A DNA stretch of 57,489 nucleotides. It comes from a virus. A program made the translations under genes and the position numbers. The notes under the pieces are model-generated. The model saw nothing but the letters and a program-made list of their open reading frames with translations. It searched no databases and was not told the DNA's origin. Of the stretch, positions 3,352 to 41,628 are shown piece by piece (the stretch's first letter is position 1; each line of letters opens with the position of its first letter). The DNA lies in IMG/VR virus record IMGVR_UViG_3300031839_001226, positions 1 through 57,489 of that record; one strand, 5' to 3'.

Positions 3352-3858
3352 TCAATCGATCGCGTATTCAATCTCCGCAGTGATCGTGCCGGCGCCGGAC
3401 GAGAGGTGTACGGCTCCTTCGATCACCACCTTGACATCCAGAAGCCCGCCGGGATCGACGGTCTGGCCGTTGACGTATTCCCACAGGCGCTTGCCCCAGT
3501 TGGCCTTGTCAGCAATGAATTCCTTCGTGCCGGCCGTGGAAGCGACGATGCCCGTGTTCAGCGCGTCAGCGTCATCCGTCATGGATTGCTTCGTGCTGGT
3601 CTTGTAGATGCCGATGCCCAGCGCGGCAGTGGTCGCACCCAGCGCATCATGCGCCAGTTTCGAGCCGCCGAAGATGCGGGCATTGGACGGAAGACGCGCC
3701 ATGAGATAGGTGGAGGTCGCGGAGTCGGCAGCGCCGGTTTCCACAGTCTCAACCCACTTGCGCGTGCGGCCACCACCCTCACCGGGGTCGGCAAGGACGG
3801 CAGGCGTGGACGTGAGGCTCGACATGATGCGCGAGCCGTAGCTGGTAACGATAGCCAT
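3352..3858 (-). CDS. Probable head decoration or capsid-associated protein
   Basis: 168 residues, lying directly after the major capsid gene. It is rich in Ala, Gly, Ser and Thr with alternating strands, no membrane segment and an acidic C-terminal strand (GTITAEIEYAID). Placement and composition are typical of capsid stabilising or decoration proteins. No named family recognised; the role is inferred from position. Confidence 0.55.
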   Translation of the reverse strand: MAIVTSYGSRIMSSLTSTPAVLADPGEGGGRTRKWVETVETGAADSATSTYLMARLPSNARIFGGSKLAHDALGATTAALGIGIYKTSTKQSMTDDADALNTGIVASTAGTKEFIADKANWGKRLWEYVNGQTVDPGGLLDVKVVIEGAVHLSSGAGTITAEIEYAID

Positions 3859-10770: not shown

Positions 10771-12168
10771 TCAGAACGGCGAGTAGTCACCGCCGGAACT
10801 TGCCGGCCTGTCACGATAGGTAGACGCATCGAAGTTGAACGGATCGAAGTCCTGAGCCACCGCTGCTCTTGGCGTCTTGTCCCGGCGGTCATCGATCAAG
10901 CCGGGGAACAGTTCGGTAAAGCCCCATACGAGAGCATCGACACGATCCGGCGAATACCCCTGCCCCTTGCGGTCGAAGTCGCTGGTGAAGTTGCACTGCT
11001 GATTCTCTAGCTCTTCGAAGTCCCCAGCATGCCTGATCCTGTCACGGGCATAGAGCGCTGCGATCGGTTCCGCCCGAACATACTTGCCTCGCGTGGCGCG
11101 AACCTGCTTTACCGGCAAATCGGGCGCATGACCGCGAATGTTTGCCTCGACCAGATCGCCGCCCTGATTGTTCTCGCAAACAATCGCGTCCGCCTTGTAA
11201 TAGTGGTACAGCGTGATAGCCTTGCGTGCCCACTCTTCCGGCTTCATCACACCCGAGCCGTCAGCAAGCACATACCCCATGCCACCCGCATCAATGGCCG
11301 TGACGACGATGCCCGTCTCGTTCGACCCGCTTTCCGTCGAGACGGCAGGATCGATTGCAACCACCACCCTGCGGAAGTCGGGCAGTTCGGCATCGTTGAG
11401 CACATAGAGCTTCTTGATCGACCCGCGCGACCACAGTGCATCCGCCTTGTCGCCCGAGAACTCACCGAGGAAGAATCTTCGCTTCTGTGCCTCCGGGAGA
11501 AACTTCAGGCTCTCGATATAGTCAGGCGCCAGGTTCTCCGCATTGTCGAGTGGATTGGCAACGCCATAGACGTAATTGCCTTTCGGCAGCGGCTTCTTCG
11601 ATTCAGGCTCGATGCCCTGCACATAGAGCTTGTACGTCCAGTGGCTTTCCGTGGTAGGATTGAGATCGACATAGCTCTTGAGTGGGAGCGGTTCGCCAAC
11701 CCCATCGCCGGCCGTAACGTCCACCTTCTGCGCCAGTCGGGTTTGAGCCACGAGATAGGACTGATACGGGATTTCCGACGCCTCGTTGAAATACAGCGTC
11801 GCGAACTCCTTGCCGAGGACCTTGTCCACACGATCCTTGTCATCGAGACCGGCAAGCCAGACCTCGGAACCGTTCGGGAAGGCAAAATACCCGTCCTGCT
11901 CCTTCCATTCTACAGCCGCGCCATCATACGCCAGTTCAAGCACCTTCGGCATAGTGTCCTTGCCGATCGATTGCTTGACCGCGACACCATGGCGGCGGAA
12001 GATCGCATGCCTGGAACCGCTGGACCTTAATGCCCTCGTGGCGATGGCATAGCAGTACAGGAACGTCTTTCCCGAGCGCGAGCCGCCGTAGATAAGGGAA
12101 TGCTTGGCAGGGCTCAGGAGCAGCGTGTCGCGTAGATGCTTCTGCTTTTCCGTGAGGAGAACGGTCAA
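10771..12168 (-). CDS. Large terminase subunit
   Basis: 465 residues. N-terminal ATPase: Walker A GGSRSGKTFL near residue 30 and a Walker B-like FATLYFNEASE near 125. C-terminal nuclease: VVVAIDPAVSTESGSNETG near 265 with a first metal-binding Asp, then ADAIVCENNQGGDLV and a final Asp region (SPDRVDALVWGFTELF). This motor cuts and pumps phage DNA into the head. Overlaps the small subunit gene by four bases. Confidence 0.95.
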   Translation of the reverse strand: MTVLLTEKQKHLRDTLLLSPAKHSLIYGGSRSGKTFLYCYAIATRALRSSGSRHAIFRRHGVAVKQSIGKDTMPKVLELAYDGAAVEWKEQDGYFAFPNGSEVWLAGLDDKDRVDKVLGKEFATLYFNEASEIPYQSYLVAQTRLAQKVDVTAGDGVGEPLPLKSYVDLNPTTESHWTYKLYVQGIEPESKKPLPKGNYVYGVANPLDNAENLAPDYIESLKFLPEAQKRRFFLGEFSGDKADALWSRGSIKKLYVLNDAELPDFRRVVVAIDPAVSTESGSNETGIVVTAIDAGGMGYVLADGSGVMKPEEWARKAITLYHYYKADAIVCENNQGGDLVEANIRGHAPDLPVKQVRATRGKYVRAEPIAALYARDRIRHAGDFEELENQQCNFTSDFDRKGQGYSPDRVDALVWGFTELFPGLIDDRRDKTPRAAVAQDFDPFNFDASTYRDRPASSGGDYSPF

Positions 12169-12584
12169 ACGCCAGCGTCGTCCTTGGCGATGGTGATGGA
12201 AAGGCCGGAATGGGCGACTTCCTGCTTATCGCGCCAGTCGTCAGGCTTGCGGTTCTTGAGCCAGTTGAACGCAGCCCCAACGTCTGGAGGGACATGCTCC
12301 ACCGTTTCAGCGCGGATGATCTGGCCTTGATACTGGAAGACTTTCTCGCTTTCGAAGGTGTAGCCGACAGCCCGATTGTACAGCGAGCGCTCTACACGTT
12401 CGTCCGCCTTTTCCTTCCCGCTAATGACTGCCTGACAAAATTCTTCGTGCACGTTCTTCCAACGATAGATCGTCCGCGTGTCCACACCGAAAAAATCCGC
12501 TAGTTCAAAGTCGGTCGCCCCGAGCGCGCAAAGCTTCGATGCCTGTGCCGCATACTCAGGGGCGTAGTCGGTTGGCCTGCCCAT
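12165..12584 (-). CDS. Small terminase subunit
   Basis: 139 residues. N-terminal helix-turn-helix, GATDFELADFFGVDTRTIYR, the DNA-recognition part, followed by an oligomerisation helix (GKEKADERVERSLYNRAVGY). NWLKNRKPDDWRDKQ is characteristic of small terminases in PBSX- and T7-like groups. The start abuts the stop of a 51-residue gene. Adjacent to the large subunit. Confidence 0.9.
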   Translation of the reverse strand: MGRPTDYAPEYAAQASKLCALGATDFELADFFGVDTRTIYRWKNVHEEFCQAVISGKEKADERVERSLYNRAVGYTFESEKVFQYQGQIIRAETVEHVPPDVGAAFNWLKNRKPDDWRDKQEVAHSGLSITIAKDDAGV

Positions 12585-12949: not shown

Positions 12950-12995
12950 GTGGAGCTCCTATCGGGGGATATGCAAAATTAATTTGCGAAACCGC

Positions 12996-13026
12996 TTGAC
13001 TATCGCCAAATGATTTGGCATATTAT
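12996..13026 (+). promoter_or_regulatory. Promoter with palindromic operator in its spacer
   Basis: TTGACT at 12996 and CATATT or TATTAT at 13019-13026 flank the perfect palindrome GCCAAAT-G-ATTTGGC at 13005-13019. A repressor bound there would block polymerase. The promoter drives the two-gene cassette 13051-13493 whose second gene is an HTH protein, the likely repressor. Confidence 0.65.
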
Positions 13027-13050
13027 GGTCACAAACCAAGGGAGACCGAC

Positions 13051-13290
13051 ATGAGAGCCATCGCACCGAAGGAAATGCCGAACCTGCCCGCCAAGGCTAC
13101 CGGATGGGCACGATCAACAAAACGGGCCGGCAGTGTTTTCCATGCCCACGCACTTGGAAGGCCAGTATGTGGGGCTCGATTCGTTATCGATAGGCATCAG
13201 GCAGAATTGCCTGACGGCCTCGGGTCTTTTCGTTACCACGGCGTATGCCCACGCTGCTACAAACTGTCCCTCGAAGCGGTCGAAGCATGA
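13051..13290 (+). CDS. Unknown small protein of a self-regulated cassette
   Basis: 79 residues from the ATG at 13051, seven bases after GGGAG. No recognised family. It has a basic middle (KATGWARSTKRAGSVFHAHA) and a possible metal pair GVCPRCYKL near the end. The next gene, an HTH protein, overlaps it by ATGA. The layout (own promoter, palindromic operator, small orphan gene, HTH gene, placed among virion genes) is that of anti-CRISPR/Aca loci and other accessory cassettes. Function is unknown. Confidence 0.65.
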   Translation: MRAIAPKEMPNLPAKATGWARSTKRAGSVFHAHALGRPVCGARFVIDRHQAELPDGLGSFRYHGVCPRCYKLSLEAVEA

Positions 13291-13493
13291 CCCCAGCCCA
13301 ATTTAAACAGGCCGTGGAAGCCCTCCAGTCTCGGGGGGCTATTCCACATGGGCACGGGTGGAAAACCGCACTGGCGGGCAAGCTGGGCCTCACCAGAACC
13401 ACCATAGACAACTTCGAACGCGATGGCACGAAAAAGGTTCAGACCGACTATGCCATTGCCGCCCTCGTTGCGGGGCTTGATCCCTATCCCTGA
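13287..13493 (+). CDS. HTH DNA-binding protein, probable autorepressor
   Basis: 68 residues. Begins MTPAQFKQAVEAL; the HTH is about residues 24-48 (GWKTALAGKLGLTRTTIDNF). The cassette at 39074 encodes a similar-sized HTH protein that also starts MTP..FK, so the two cassettes may be distant relatives. It probably binds the 15-bp palindrome at 13005-13019. Inferred role: repressor of its own operon. Confidence 0.75.
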   Translation: MTPAQFKQAVEALQSRGAIPHGHGWKTALAGKLGLTRTTIDNFERDGTKKVQTDYAIAALVAGLDPYP

Positions 13494-13510
13494 TCAGGTG
13501 GGGCCTCTTG

Positions 13511-13965
13511 GGGATGGGGGAGGATGCGAGGCGGTGGCGCGTATGGGCTTCCCGTAGGCTGACCGCAGCAGCAAGATAAGGGCATCAACGCCGCGCGTAC
13601 CAGCCTCGCATTCTGTACCCCTCTCATATCGGGAGGGGAAGGGATTGGGCTAGCCGTAGCCGCGAAACCATGTCGCTGACCCGCCATCAGGTGCACCGCC
13701 AACCCGAGGGAAGGCTTAGGCGAGCCGCCCAAACTGTATGCCGCTATGGAGCGGCGGAATTGAATGGGCTGCCGGTTATCACCTCAGCGGGGCCACCGCG
13801 TGTGTCGGTGCCGGAATCCCGCAACGCTGTCCGCTGGCTAAGCGGCTATTCGCGTCTTTAGGGATGCCCAACTCTGACCCGCTCATCGCGGGGAACTCAC
13901 TGGCGCAAAGGGCCTCTATCTGAGCAATGCAAAGCCACATGCCTCAACGCAACATGCGGAGGCTG
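13511..13965 (+). ncRNA. Candidate large structured RNA
   Basis: No credible gene spans 13494-14028. The stretch folds into a long helix, 13516-13541 with 13592-13621, giving about 25 pairs with small bulges, including the perfect ATGCGAGGC/GCCTCGCAT. Local hairpins follow: 13648-13661 (GGCTA/TAGCC), 13740-13755 (GCCGCT/AGCGGC), 13791-13812 (CACCG/CGGTG), 13831-13845 (CCGCT/AGCGG), 13878-13892 (CCCGC/GCGGG) and 13941-13963 (GCCTC/GAGGC with inner CGC/GCG). The first part uses several G-U pairs only possible on the + strand. No match to RNase P RNA, tmRNA or a tRNA was seen. Confidence 0.45.
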
Positions 13966-14028
13966 GGGCGAACCGGCGAGTGATCTTGCGATCCCGCTAA
14001 CTGCACATTCGCTCATCCGATGCACAAC

Positions 14029-14628
14029 CTATGCTGCCGCTTCGTTCGCGTCAATAGGCGTCAGGTCTCTTGCGTCAAATTCCACAGGAACCATGCCTCC
14101 GAGAAGTTCGATCATCGCCTTCACCTTGCGCCGTCCCTTGGCTGCTACAACGCTGCCATAGAAGCCGCTGAACGAGTGCCCTTCCTTGACAGCCACACGC
14201 AAACCCTTGTGGAACTTGGCCTTGAGTTCGTCCTTTTCGTTTGCCATGATCTCCCCGCGATATATCTTGGCCTTCCGGGTGTCATCAAACTCCATTTCGA
14301 CCTCGGCTTCACGGAACTCGCGAACGATCTTTGCTGATACCCTGGCAGGCAATCCATTGACGCCTAGAAGACTCTCGACACCATCGCATGAGCGGGCAAA
14401 GCCGAAATGAAACGGCCCACTCTCGACGCCCACGAACAGATAGCGGTTGAACAGGACGAACTCCTTCGTGATGACCGCCTTTGTCCGATGATGGATGATG
14501 TCCTTGCGCATTCGAGGCAGGTACACGTCGAAGCCGGCCGATCGCAGGGATGATGCCGCCCTGTCCTCGCAACGTATGCCGGTTCTCGCGACATACCATT
14601 GCGAGCTGTCGCTGATGTTTGCCTTCAT
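14029..14628 (-). CDS. NusG-family transcription elongation factor
   Basis: 199 residues, close to NusG length. N-terminal NGN domain: QWYVARTGIRCEDRAASSLR, FDVYLPRMRK and LFNRYLFVGV, followed by VESLLGVNGLPARVS. After a charged linker, a KOW domain reads GLRVAVKEGHSFSGFYGSVV and ends VEFDARDLTPI. The family clamps RNA polymerase and can antiterminate. It lies at the end of the leftward early operon just before the terminase genes, which suggests a late-gene antiterminator. A gene copied from a host NusG is possible. Confidence 0.85.
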   Translation of the reverse strand: MKANISDSSQWYVARTGIRCEDRAASSLRSAGFDVYLPRMRKDIIHHRTKAVITKEFVLFNRYLFVGVESGPFHFGFARSCDGVESLLGVNGLPARVSAKIVREFREAEVEMEFDDTRKAKIYRGEIMANEKDELKAKFHKGLRVAVKEGHSFSGFYGSVVAAKGRRKVKAMIELLGGMVPVEFDARDLTPIDANEAAA

Positions 14629-18040: not shown

Positions 18041-18556
18041 TCATCGTCCTCCCGGAGTTCCGGAGCGCCCGTGGTTTTCGTGGAACCCGTATTGGCGTTC
18101 TGCTGCGCGTCGTGCGCTTGCGGCCTCGTCTAGGCAGTCAAACATGCCGATATGCTTCAACTGCCCATCAAGATTTCGTATCTGCGCGCACCAACGGCCA
18201 GTCGCCTTAACCTTGTAGACGCCGCTTACACCGCTCCTATTCGTACACCTGAGCGCCTTGTTGCGCTGATTGATCTGACATGGAACCGACCGAAGATTGG
18301 CGATAGCGTTGTTGTGGCAATCACCGTTTATGTGATCGATATGTTCTGATGGCCATTCACCATGAACATAGAACCACGCTAGTCGATGACCACTGTATTG
18401 TTTCCCGTTGATCGCTATCCGTTCGTATCGCCAAGTTCTGCCGCCCGCTCGCTTGCCGGCACTCCCACTCCCGCTGCTACGCAACCAAGTGAACTCGCCA
18501 GTGACAGGATCGTAGTGGATGACCGATCTAAGCTCCTCCAGTGTCAAATCCGTCAT
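18041..18556 (-). CDS. HNH endonuclease with AP2 DNA-binding domain
   Basis: 171 residues from the ATG at 18556. N-terminal GEFTWLRSS then YSGHRLAWFYVHGEWPSEHI and DHINGDCHNNAIANLRSV form the HNH core with His, Asp and Asn in place. The C-terminus SGVSGVYKVKATGRWCAQIR is an AP2 fold used for target recognition. Free-standing homing endonucleases of this layout are frequent in phages. Overlaps the previous gene by the TGATG junction. Confidence 0.88.
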   Translation of the reverse strand: MTDLTLEELRSVIHYDPVTGEFTWLRSSGSGSAGKRAGGRTWRYERIAINGKQYSGHRLAWFYVHGEWPSEHIDHINGDCHNNAIANLRSVPCQINQRNKALRCTNRSGVSGVYKVKATGRWCAQIRNLDGQLKHIGMFDCLDEAASARRAAERQYGFHENHGRSGTPGGR

Positions 18557-19188
18557 CACCTCAACTCCCCCCGCGTCTTCGCCTTGCTCTTCGCAGCTTC
18601 CAAGCGAGCCACGTCATCATCACGGCCTTCCAGTTCTTCAATCTGCGCAAGAACCTCAGCCCTATGGGCCATCAACTCTGAGACGACCGCCTCGCGTAAA
18701 GTCTTGAGCAGATATGCGCTGACCGTGATGGCTTTGTGTCGCAGATGGTCCAGCTTCGATGCGCTGATACCGTAGTCAGCGGTGATTTCCTTCCTTGCCT
18801 CACCCATAGTGAGGCCCTTTCGTTGGCAACGGTTCCATACCAGCCTACGGGCGAGATGCTTCGCTTCCTCCGCCAAAGCAGCTTCACCAAGCGCCCATTC
18901 TTTCTCGGCCGCCGTCTCACATATTTCAGCGACTGCGCCATCAGGAAGATCGGCAATCATGCGACGAATTTCGGCACTCCCACGAAACCACTCGCCGAAC
19001 TCAAGATGCCGTGCAAAGCCGCTTTGAATCTTCTTTTCGCGCCGCCTATCGCCATTGATAACCCTGATAATCTCAAGAGCGCCGTGGTTCTTGGTCAGGA
19101 CGCGGAGACGCGCATCAAAGTTCGTCGTATAGCCGACCTTGATCAACCCATCGCGGCGACCAAGAAAGTAGATGCTGCCGGTCTTCAT
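18556..19188 (-). CDS. T5orf172/GIY-YIG-like protein with coiled-coil tail
   Basis: 210 residues. Residues 5-75 match the T5orf172 nuclease-like domain: SIYFLGRRDGLIKVGYTTNF then ARLRVLTKNHG and SGFARHLEFGEWFRG. The tail has a helix-turn-helix-like stretch (KGLTMGEARKEITADYGIS) and a long coiled coil. A second T5orf172 protein is encoded at 35835. Nuclease activity is plausible but unproven. Confidence 0.7.
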   Translation of the reverse strand: MKTGSIYFLGRRDGLIKVGYTTNFDARLRVLTKNHGALEIIRVINGDRRREKKIQSGFARHLEFGEWFRGSAEIRRMIADLPDGAVAEICETAAEKEWALGEAALAEEAKHLARRLVWNRCQRKGLTMGEARKEITADYGISASKLDHLRHKAITVSAYLLKTLREAVVSELMAHRAEVLAQIEELEGRDDDVARLEAAKSKAKTRGELR

Positions 19189-38755: not shown

Positions 38756-38784
38756 TTGCAATCCTGTGAACATTGTTCTATGTT
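38756..38784 (+). promoter_or_regulatory. Promoter with palindromic operator in its spacer
   Basis: TTGCAA (38756), 17 bases, TATGTT (38779). The palindrome GAACA-T-TGTTC at 38768-38778 lies inside the spacer, the same design as at 12996-13026. It drives 38829-39289, whose second gene is an HTH protein. Confidence 0.65.
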
Positions 38785-38828
38785 GTGTGTACGGCAATGA
38801 AGCCGACCTAACCGCAAGGGGAAATGCG

Positions 38829-39077
38829 ATGATGAACTACAGGATGGAATACCAAGCCCAGAACGGGGATGACGAAGTTGTCCATCTCGGCCAGCTTTCA
38901 GTAGCAGCCGCCAGAGCGCGCGCTCGTCGCCTCAGCGAGAAGCCCGGTCACTTTTTCACTTTCGGTAACGTCGTCTACCTCATGGGTGCGGACGCTGACG
39001 GAACGGACCAAGAATTGTACACCTACTTCGCCGGCACGATGACGGAGAAGGACTTGGTGAAGGATTGGGATAAGTGA
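38829..39077 (+). CDS. Unknown small protein of a self-regulated cassette
   Basis: 82 residues from the ATG at 38829 after AAGGGG. Helix-rich middle (LSVAAARARARRLSEKPGHF) and an acidic end (YFAGTMTEKDLVKDWDK). No known family. Followed with overlap by an HTH gene, in an anti-CRISPR/Aca-like layout between the early and lysis modules. Function unknown. Confidence 0.65.
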   Translation: MMNYRMEYQAQNGDDEVVHLGQLSVAAARARARRLSEKPGHFFTFGNVVYLMGADADGTDQELYTYFAGTMTEKDLVKDWDK

Positions 39078-39289
39078 CCCCATACGAATTCAAGAACGCC
39101 CGCCTGTCGCTGACAACCACCAGCGGCGGGCGGATGACCGAAGGCAAGATGGCGACCGTCCTTAACGTCAACAAGCGCACCCTGCAATATTGGGAATCCG
39201 ATGACGGAAAACGCCCGCCTCATCCTACCGCAGTCAGGGTGATGCAGTGGTTCCTTGCTGGGTATAGACCGCCTGAATGGCCTGTCTAA
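39074..39289 (+). CDS. HTH DNA-binding protein, probable autorepressor
   Basis: 71 residues from a GTG at 39074. HTH: MTEGKMATVLNVNKRTLQYW then ESDDGKRPPHPTAVRVMQWF. The recognition-helix ending RTLQYWES resembles Aca-type repressors of anti-CRISPR operons and other small XRE proteins. It begins MTPYEFK, like the HTH protein at 13287. Likely binds GAACATTGTTC upstream. Confidence 0.75.
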   Translation: MTPYEFKNARLSLTTTSGGRMTEGKMATVLNVNKRTLQYWESDDGKRPPHPTAVRVMQWFLAGYRPPEWPV

Positions 39290-40949: not shown

Positions 40950-41046
40950 TGTCTCGTTCCCTTGTGGATGGTACAAATAGCGAACGCGCCGCAGGGCTGG
41001 CACCCGGCGACGCGCTCTAACCAGCCCAACCTGTCAGGAGGTCAAG

Positions 41047-41628
41047 ATGGCTGCTTCTCGTTTATGCTCGATTCCGAACTGCAACAAGGCGGCGTTTTGC
41101 CGGGGTTGGTGTTCGGCGCATCACTGGAGATTTCGCAAATTCGGCGACCCGCTCGCTGGACCGCCTCTACGCAATCGTTGGGGTTCGCCCGTTTGCATTG
41201 TCGATGGCTGCAACTCGCCTCGGAAGAGAGGAAGTGGCATGTGTACCGCGCACACTTTGCGGAAGTGGCGGCATGGTGATCCGCTTTCTGGAAGAACGCC
41301 AGTAGGAGAGCCCGCCAAGTTCATCAAAAAGGTGCTAGCCACCCCTACGAAAGAGTGCGTTTCATGGCCGTATTCTCGGGGCGTAGACGGCCGGCCACTA
41401 ATCAATAATAATTCGATCAGCGACAGCACCAAGATCGTCTCCCGGATCATTTGCATCGCGGCCCACGGAGAGCCGCCATCCCCTGCCTATGAGGCGGCGC
41501 ACTCATGCGGGAACGGACACCTCGGGTGCGTGAACCCTCTACATTTGCGATGGAGGACGCATCGGCAAAACATGCAAGAGACTTTGATCCACCGAGAAGA
41601 AGGTAAAGGGCGATGGGCCGCGCAGTGA
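41047..41628 (+). CDS. HNH homing endonuclease with two zinc-finger-like units
   Basis: 193 residues. Two repeated units, LCSIPNCNKAAFCRGWCSAH and CIVDGCNSPRKRGSGMCTAH, then WRFRKFGDPL/LRKWRHGDPL, likely bind DNA. The C-terminal HNH core is EAAHSCGNGHLGCVNPLHLR. It is inserted against the lysis operon between holin and endolysin, as expected for a free-standing homing gene. Confidence 0.85.
   Translation: MAASRLCSIPNCNKAAFCRGWCSAHHWRFRKFGDPLAGPPLRNRWGSPVCIVDGCNSPRKRGSGMCTAHTLRKWRHGDPLSGRTPVGEPAKFIKKVLATPTKECVSWPYSRGVDGRPLINNNSISDSTKIVSRIICIAAHGEPPSPAYEAAHSCGNGHLGCVNPLHLRWRTHRQNMQETLIHREEGKGRWAAQ

What the first reader, a model, noticed from the sequence alone, without database searches (positions are those of the whole stretch)
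12996..13493. Anti-CRISPR/Aca-like cassette 1 among virion genes
Promoter with a 15-bp perfect palindrome (GCCAAAT-G-ATTTGGC) in its spacer, an orphan 79-residue gene, then an ATGA-overlapped HTH gene, read against the late operon. This is the layout of anti-CRISPR loci, where the HTH Aca protein shuts down its own promoter. The orphan gene would be a candidate defence inhibitor.
Basis: partly seen in the sequence, partly recalled or inferred. Interest (0 to 1): 0.72.

Follow-up and report, generated by a model that had tools for sequence, protein, structure and literature searches.

The report
Swappable phage gene with self-repressing switch
A small gene pair in a bacterial virus has a conserved on/off switch and a payload gene that differs from phage to phage, which is how known anti-CRISPR operons are built; the payload could block a bacterial defence, but nothing shows that yet.

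Summary
A promoter has a perfect 15-bp palindrome in its spacer (13005-13019). It reads a 79-aa orphan gene (13051-13290) and an ATGA-overlapped 68-aa HTH gene (13287-13493), against the terminase strand of a temperate phage. The palindrome alone is weak evidence: about 3% of promoter-sized random sequences hold one. What makes it real is a second phage, IMGVR_UViG_3300012990_000009. There the promoter is 37/42 identical and the HTH 78% identical, under strong purifying selection (dN 0.16, dS about 2.3), while the first gene is unrelated. It also lies antisense beside the terminase genes. A third phage, Microcystis phage Mae-JY35, has the same layout with a divergent HTH, its own inverted repeat and yet another first gene. 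This conserved-switch, swapped-payload pattern is the guilt-by-association signature of acr-aca operons. The HTH gives no sequence match to solved Aca proteins; its modelled fold ties with Aca10 and Aca1, but also HigA2. No known anti-CRISPR is linked, and CRISPR specificity is untested. Best reading: an autorepressed, exchangeable cargo cassette whose first gene is probably, not certainly, counter-defence. The wider HTH family includes many chromosomal, non-phage regulators, so membership alone does not mark an Aca.

The parts
12996..13024 (+). Core promoter: -35 TTGACT (12996-13001), -10-like CATATT (13019-13024), 17-nt spacer
   Evidence: 26 of 29 positions identical to L001 7761-7789
12983..13024 (+). 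Promoter block conserved in an otherwise dissimilar phage: 37 of 42 identical, against 26 of 83 upstream and 11 of 26 downstream
13005..13019 (.). Perfect 7-1-7 palindrome GCCAAAT-G-ATTTGGC, inferred operator of the HTH protein; in L001 GCCAAAT-T-AGTTGGC (6 of 7 arm pairs kept)
13051..13290 (+). Gene 1: 79-aa orphan protein, basic (pI 9.8), with C40, H63, C66, C69; candidate cargo / counter-defence gene
   Evidence: no relatives of significance; codon support weak
13287..13493 (+). Gene 2: 68-aa four-helix HTH protein, ATGA-coupled to gene 1; inferred autorepressor
   Evidence: 78% identical to L001 8001-8204; dN 0.157, dS 2.35
12165..12584 (-). Terminase small subunit (flanking late gene)
   Evidence: PHROG 309, E 2e-49
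10771..12168 (-). Terminase large subunit (flanking late gene)
   Evidence: PHROG 979, E 4.6e-62
14029..14628 (-). NusG-like transcription factor gene on the far side of the cassette
   Evidence: Pfam NusG, E 1e-11

Best explanation
This is an autonomous, exchangeable cargo cassette that works like an acr-aca operon. Inferred mechanism: on infection, host RNA polymerase fires the promoter before any repressor is present, giving a burst of the gene 1 product. The ATGA-coupled HTH protein then accumulates, dimerises, binds the palindrome across the -35/-10 spacer and shuts its own promoter, which limits cost and antisense transcription against the packaging operon. Gene 1 is the payload and acts on the host, most likely as a counter-defence protein. 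Shown by sequence: the layout, conservation of switch plus regulator with replacement of the payload, and purifying selection on the HTH. Inferred: DNA binding, autorepression (about 0.8) and counter-defence activity of gene 1 (about 0.4). CRISPR as the target is only one possibility (about 0.15).
For: L001 carries the same three-part cassette. Promoter 37/42 identical with the operator kept, HTH 78% identical, the same 26-nt start spacing and ATGA junction, but an unrelated 62-aa first gene (no meaningful alignment, E 5.7). DNA similarity between L001 (11 kb) and the window is otherwise limited to an 89-bp leader of HNH genes. HTH dN 0.157 against dS 2.35, so the switch was kept over a long divergence. 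Mae-JY35 has a 62-aa gene, ATGA and a 65-aa HTH antisense beside the terminase genes, with inverted repeat ACTTGTAT-gga-ATACAGGT over its -35 and another unrelated first gene. In published acr-aca promoters one inverted repeat always lies inside the core promoter, and Acr-linked Acas mostly average 60-65 aa (PMC9410906, Results read). The HTH model is a four-helix HTH whose top matches are HigA2, Aca10, NE0471, Aca1 and SO3848, largely the set reported for Aca10 itself (PMC9410881, passages). The phage is temperate: integrase and S24 repressor. A related Phyllobacterium prophage carries an antisense TIR-TM-type defence gene about 2 kb upstream of its TerS.
Against: Only one other phage shares the close HTH (1 relative; 0). 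Gene 1 is an orphan with weak codon support and an unusable structure model (pLDDT 40). No match to known Acas by sequence. The wider HTH family found with A4 (18 of 382 genomes) is often not in phages, and none of the 9 neighbourhoods read by eye, of 17 fetched, showed the full three-part layout. The HTH was absent from all 92 other loci checked (L006-L097, nearly all TerL relatives), so the cassette is not fixed in this phage group. The palindrome itself is expected by chance in 3% of promoter-sized sequences.
Confidence: 0.6

Rival explanations
1. A lysogenic-conversion moron: the same autorepressed cassette, but gene 1 changes the host (superinfection exclusion, metabolism) rather than blocking a defence.
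For: Same layout evidence; the phage is temperate, and an antisense slot upstream of TerS holds an accessory TIR gene in a related prophage.
Against: Tight autorepression suits a short burst at infection better than steady expression from a prophage (inference). Nothing in gene 1 points to a membrane or surface role.
Confidence: 0.2
2. A type II toxin-antitoxin pair in higBA order (toxin first, HTH antitoxin second, autoregulated through a palindrome).
For: Gene order and palindromic promoter fit; the best structural match is HigA2 (Z 7.2), and HipB gives the weak sequence matches.
Against: An antitoxin must recognise its own toxin, yet a 78%-identical HTH is paired with two unrelated first genes. 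Gene 1 matches no toxin family. Three Acas (Aca6, Aca9, Aca10) and AcrIIA1 are themselves reported to resemble the HTH antitoxins HigA2 and GraA (PMC9410906).
Confidence: 0.1
3. The HTH protein and antisense transcript regulate packaging or late genes; gene 1 is incidental.
For: All four phage loci first reached through HTH homology (window, L001, Mae-JY35, G443) are antisense beside terminase genes.
Against: Exact position differs (TerS-NusG gap, TerS-TerL gap, upstream of TerS). 0 of 92 other loci (L006-L097) carry the HTH. No second operator copy in late regions: 5 sites with up to 3 mismatches, not above shuffles.
Confidence: 0.05
4. Gene 1 is not a protein-coding gene but a leader ORF; only the HTH gene matters.
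For: Codon score for gene 1 lies in the non-coding range and it has no relatives.
Against: Ribosome-binding site, 26-nt start spacing from the promoter and ATGA coupling recur in L001 around a different ORF. Recently acquired cargo often has foreign codon usage (established knowledge).
Confidence: 0.05

Closest known systems
acr-aca operons (Aca1, Aca10 as nearest folds)
   Same: Small first gene(s), short HTH gene in the same operon, inverted repeat inside the core promoter, regulator conserved while first genes are exchanged; four-helix HTH fold.
   Different: No known Acr is linked; no sequence match to solved Aca proteins; the operator GCCAAATNATTTGGC differs from the Aca10 repeat printed in PMC9410881; the cassette is antisense beside the terminase genes.
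HigBA / HipBA toxin-antitoxin operons
   Same: HTH fold and, for higBA, gene order and palindromic autoregulation (operon organisation recalled).
   Different: The first gene is exchanged without change of regulator, and no toxin family matches.
Phage morons (autonomous cargo units in late regions)
   Same: Own promoter, opposite strand, patchy presence among relatives.
   Different: It carries its own dedicated repressor; no terminator-like site was found downstream of the HTH gene on +.
Widespread alphaproteobacterial small HTH proteins (for example the L182-L184 and L187-L188 types)
   Same: Same profile family (A4) with weak E-values.
   Different: Those are about 99 aa, sit in chromosomal contigs without the searched terminase genes nearby and differ in sequence; the window and L001 proteins are a separate close branch.

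Membership tests
Aca (anti-CRISPR-associated regulator) | Short HTH protein encoded downstream of small gene(s) in the same operon | tested here: met
   68-aa HTH, ATGA-coupled to a 79-aa gene; recurs in L001 and Mae-JY35
Aca (anti-CRISPR-associated regulator) | Inverted repeat inside the core promoter | tested here: met
   13005-13019 within the 12996-13024 promoter; kept in L001; criterion from PMC9410906
Aca (anti-CRISPR-associated regulator) | Same regulator found with different first genes | tested here: met
   P0002 and P0003 78% identical; P0001 and P0004 unrelated
Aca (anti-CRISPR-associated regulator) | Sequence membership in a known Aca family | tested here: inconclusive
   No Aca among PDB matches to P0002 or profile A4 at E up to 10; Aca families without solved structures could not be searched
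Aca (anti-CRISPR-associated regulator) | Aca-type fold | tested here: inconclusive
   Aca10 Z 7.1 (rmsd 1.7, 53 aligned) and Aca1 Z 7.0 (2.1, 56) tie with HigA2 7.2 and others; model pLDDT 75
Aca (anti-CRISPR-associated regulator) | Linked to a known anti-CRISPR gene | tested here: inconclusive
   P0001 has no NCBIfam, Pfam, PHROG or PDB match of significance; no dedicated Acr library was available
Aca (anti-CRISPR-associated regulator) | Represses its own promoter through the repeat | not testable with these tools
   Needs a reporter or EMSA
Anti-CRISPR / counter-defence protein (gene 1) | Inhibits a defence system | not testable with these tools
   Orphan protein, needs plaque assays
Type II toxin-antitoxin (HigBA-like) | First gene belongs to a toxin family | tested here: not met
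   No Pfam, NCBIfam or PADLOC toxin match for P0001
Type II toxin-antitoxin (HigBA-like) | Regulator and first gene stay paired | tested here: not met
   First gene replaced in L001 with the HTH kept

The most novel reading that the evidence does not exclude
The strand opposite the terminase genes is a recurring insertion slot in alphaproteobacterial-type phages for autorepressed anti-defence cassettes. Their small HTH proteins form new Aca-like families with their own operators, and gene 1 and its counterparts (P0004, P0009) are unrelated inhibitors of host defences, not necessarily CRISPR. The HTH and operator could then serve as bait for further inhibitors.
Probability: 0.3. Interest if true: 0.65.

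Novelty: new variant of a known kind. Interest (0 to 1): 0.5.

Why it matters
If right, this adds an Aca-like regulator with a defined operator that matched none of the solved Acas, in phages probably of Alphaproteobacteria. It also names three unrelated candidate counter-defence proteins (79, 62 and 62 aa) that are directly testable. It further shows how little a palindrome next to an HTH proves alone: comparison with a second phage is what carries the case.

Tried and rejected
Homology searches for gene 1: families, phages, PDB and viral contigs (10 stretches matched, 0 relatives) gave nothing of significance. In 385 genomes of the class, 7 had weak matches (E 4.7e-4 to 0.008). I judged them chance after reading the alignments: R/P-rich or short alignments, and stops inside 3 of the 7. 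Weak HTH matches (2 of 397; 2 of 385) were partial or lay in long frames and were dropped. In one search (2 of 385) one was followed (G443) and one (G526, E 0.007) was dropped after looking at its DNA. In one search (2 of 7) one is G443 itself; the other (G741, E 3e-4) was fetched but its neighbourhood was not read.

Operator scan of viral contigs: 38 stretches matched the loose pattern; only 1 of 38, the already known L001 record, had the HTH behind it. L139 has identical arms (TTGCCAAAT-A-ATTTGGCAA) in a promoter-like setting, but no member of this HTH family was found downstream, so it was left unexplained.

TerL relatives: 0 of 92 loci (L006-L097) carry the HTH. I read ORFs by eye in three, L008, L014 and L087. 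Profile A3 on 50 records found 0 of 50; that answer carries no positive control within the call.

Wider HTH family: A4 gave 19 places in 18 of 382 genomes. I fetched regions for 16 of the 18 plus G741, giving 17 regions, and read 9 of 17 neighbourhoods. None showed an ATGA-coupled small gene with the full layout; two (L178, L180) had a roughly 30-aa hydrophobic peptide ORF upstream. Structure of gene 1: pLDDT 40, not used. RNA in 13494-14028: no Rfam match, fold z -1.56 and -0.70, not pursued. Literature: searches; nothing on this cassette or on Mae-JY35 was listed, in a library that lacks most subscription papers. Of PMC11065993, PMC9765179 and PMC8434428 I saw outline and abstract, of PMC9765179 also one methods section; of PMC6538845 only passages.

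Full report
What was checked. The window is an IMG/VR virus record of 57,489 bases. It carries terminase subunits and a NusG-like gene on the minus strand, and an integrase, an S24-type repressor and a Rad52-like protein on plus, so it is a temperate tailed phage or prophage. That is a TTGACT-17-CATATT promoter, a perfect 15-bp palindrome filling its spacer, a 79-codon gene, and a 68-codon HTH gene sharing ATGA with the first gene's stop.

How far chance explains it. A perfect 7-1-7 palindrome occurs three times in the window, and 3% of simulated promoter-sized sequences hold one, so this alone would not convince. Codon usage supports the HTH gene and leaves gene 1 in the non-coding range.

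The decisive comparison. Scanning viral contigs with the HTH protein found one relative, in IMGVR_UViG_3300012990_000009 (L001). This phage has a different packaging and connector set: its TerS falls in PHROG 1482, against 309 in the window, and a PHROG 332 head-tail adaptor lies nearby; the two large terminases share PHROG 979, so they are distant relatives. Over the 11 kb held, DNA similarity to the window is confined to the promoter block, the HTH gene and an 89-bp leader before HNH genes. In the promoter block 37 of 42 bases agree, against 26 of 83 just upstream and 11 of 26 just downstream. The start codon lies 26 nt behind the -10 in both, and both end gene 1 in ATGA. The HTH proteins are 78% identical with dN 0.157 and dS 2.35, the latter near saturation. 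The first genes are unrelated. A switch and regulator kept over a long divergence while the payload is exchanged is what the acr-aca literature reports (PMC9765179 abstract; PMC9410906 Results).

A third and a fourth locus. L001 has a third gene after its HTH: a MUG113/T5orf172 domain fused to a C-terminal HTH. That HTH is 66% identical to a free-standing 65-aa protein of Microcystis phage Mae-JY35. There too it is the second of two ATGA-coupled small genes, antisense beside the terminase genes, with an inverted repeat (7 of 8 pairs) over the -35 of a TTGTAT-17-TATATT promoter (promoter read by eye) and a first gene unrelated to the other two. Its 157-aa HTH-bearing protein is again antisense beside TerL, downstream of an inverted repeat GTTCAA-tt-TTGAAC. 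All four phage loci reached this way, the window included, were antisense beside terminase genes, although the other three were not chosen for position.

Limits of the family argument. A wider profile (A4) matched 18 of 382 genomes of one order. Many of these proteins are chromosomal regulators with no visible phage context, and none of the 9 neighbourhoods read showed the full cassette. The HTH was absent from 92 other loci, nearly all of them TerL relatives. Related phages use the same area for other cargo: a Phyllobacterium prophage whose TerL is 70% identical has an antisense TIR gene (PADLOC TIR-TM, E 1.4e-57) about 2 kb upstream of TerS.

Fold. The HTH model (pLDDT 75) is a four-helix HTH. 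Its top structural matches are HigA2 (Z 7.2), Aca10 (7.1), NE0471 (7.0), Aca1 (7.0) and SO3848 (7.0). These largely coincide with the nearest neighbours reported for Aca10 (PMC9410881, passages). The ties show a shared fold, not membership.

Mechanism. The best-supported reading is a burst-then-shut-off cassette: the naked promoter fires on entry, the payload is made, and the HTH dimer then covers the -35/-10 spacer and silences it. Autorepression is inferred from anatomy and from published reporter tests of ten promoter/Aca pairs (PMC9410906). That the payload counters a host defence is inferred by analogy and from the exchange of payloads. CRISPR is not singled out by any evidence here.

Verdict. 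Observation confirmed. The Aca-like interpretation is partly supported: it works like an acr-aca operon on three tested architectural features. It cannot be filed as an Aca, because no linked anti-CRISPR and no repression has been shown.

Noticed in passing
window 40981-41069 and L001 932-1020: An 89-bp, 91%-identical leader directly upstream of plus-strand genes that read as HNH endonucleases (name by eye) in two otherwise dissimilar phages; a shared 5' element, perhaps mobile with the gene.
   Followed up: partly
L151 6123-6209, L178 6690-6776, L180 6928-7023: Peptide ORFs of 28-31 aa, hydrophobic and probably membrane-spanning, sit just upstream of small HTH genes of this wider family; those in L151 and L178 are clearly alike and follow G+C-rich inverted repeats. 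Possibly a type I toxin-like or holin-like unit; no Pfam match for the L151 peptide.
   Followed up: partly
window 38766-39289 (+): Another ATGA-coupled small-gene/HTH pair: 103 aa plus 71 aa (weak MerR-like match), in the early region, not related to the cassette HTH by profile.
   Followed up: partly
   Followed up: partly
window 13494-14028: 535 bp between the HTH gene and the NusG-like gene without coding signal on either strand and without Rfam or phage DNA match; G+C up to 65%.
   Followed up: partly
L087 1854-2708 (-): TIR-domain gene (PADLOC TIR-TM, E 1.4e-57) antisense, about 2 kb upstream of TerS in a Phyllobacterium prophage with 70% identical TerL.
   Followed up: partly
L001 8206-8685 (+): Third gene of the second cassette: MUG113/T5orf172 domain fused to a C-terminal HTH, possibly a regulator-nuclease fusion. 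The window has its own T5orf172-type gene at 18556-19188 (-).
   Followed up: partly
L139 (viral contig IMGVR_UViG_3300028454_000019), about 3803-3826 (-): The same palindrome arms (TTGCCAAAT-A-ATTTGGCAA) behind a TTGACT, without this HTH family downstream; unexplained.
   Followed up: partly
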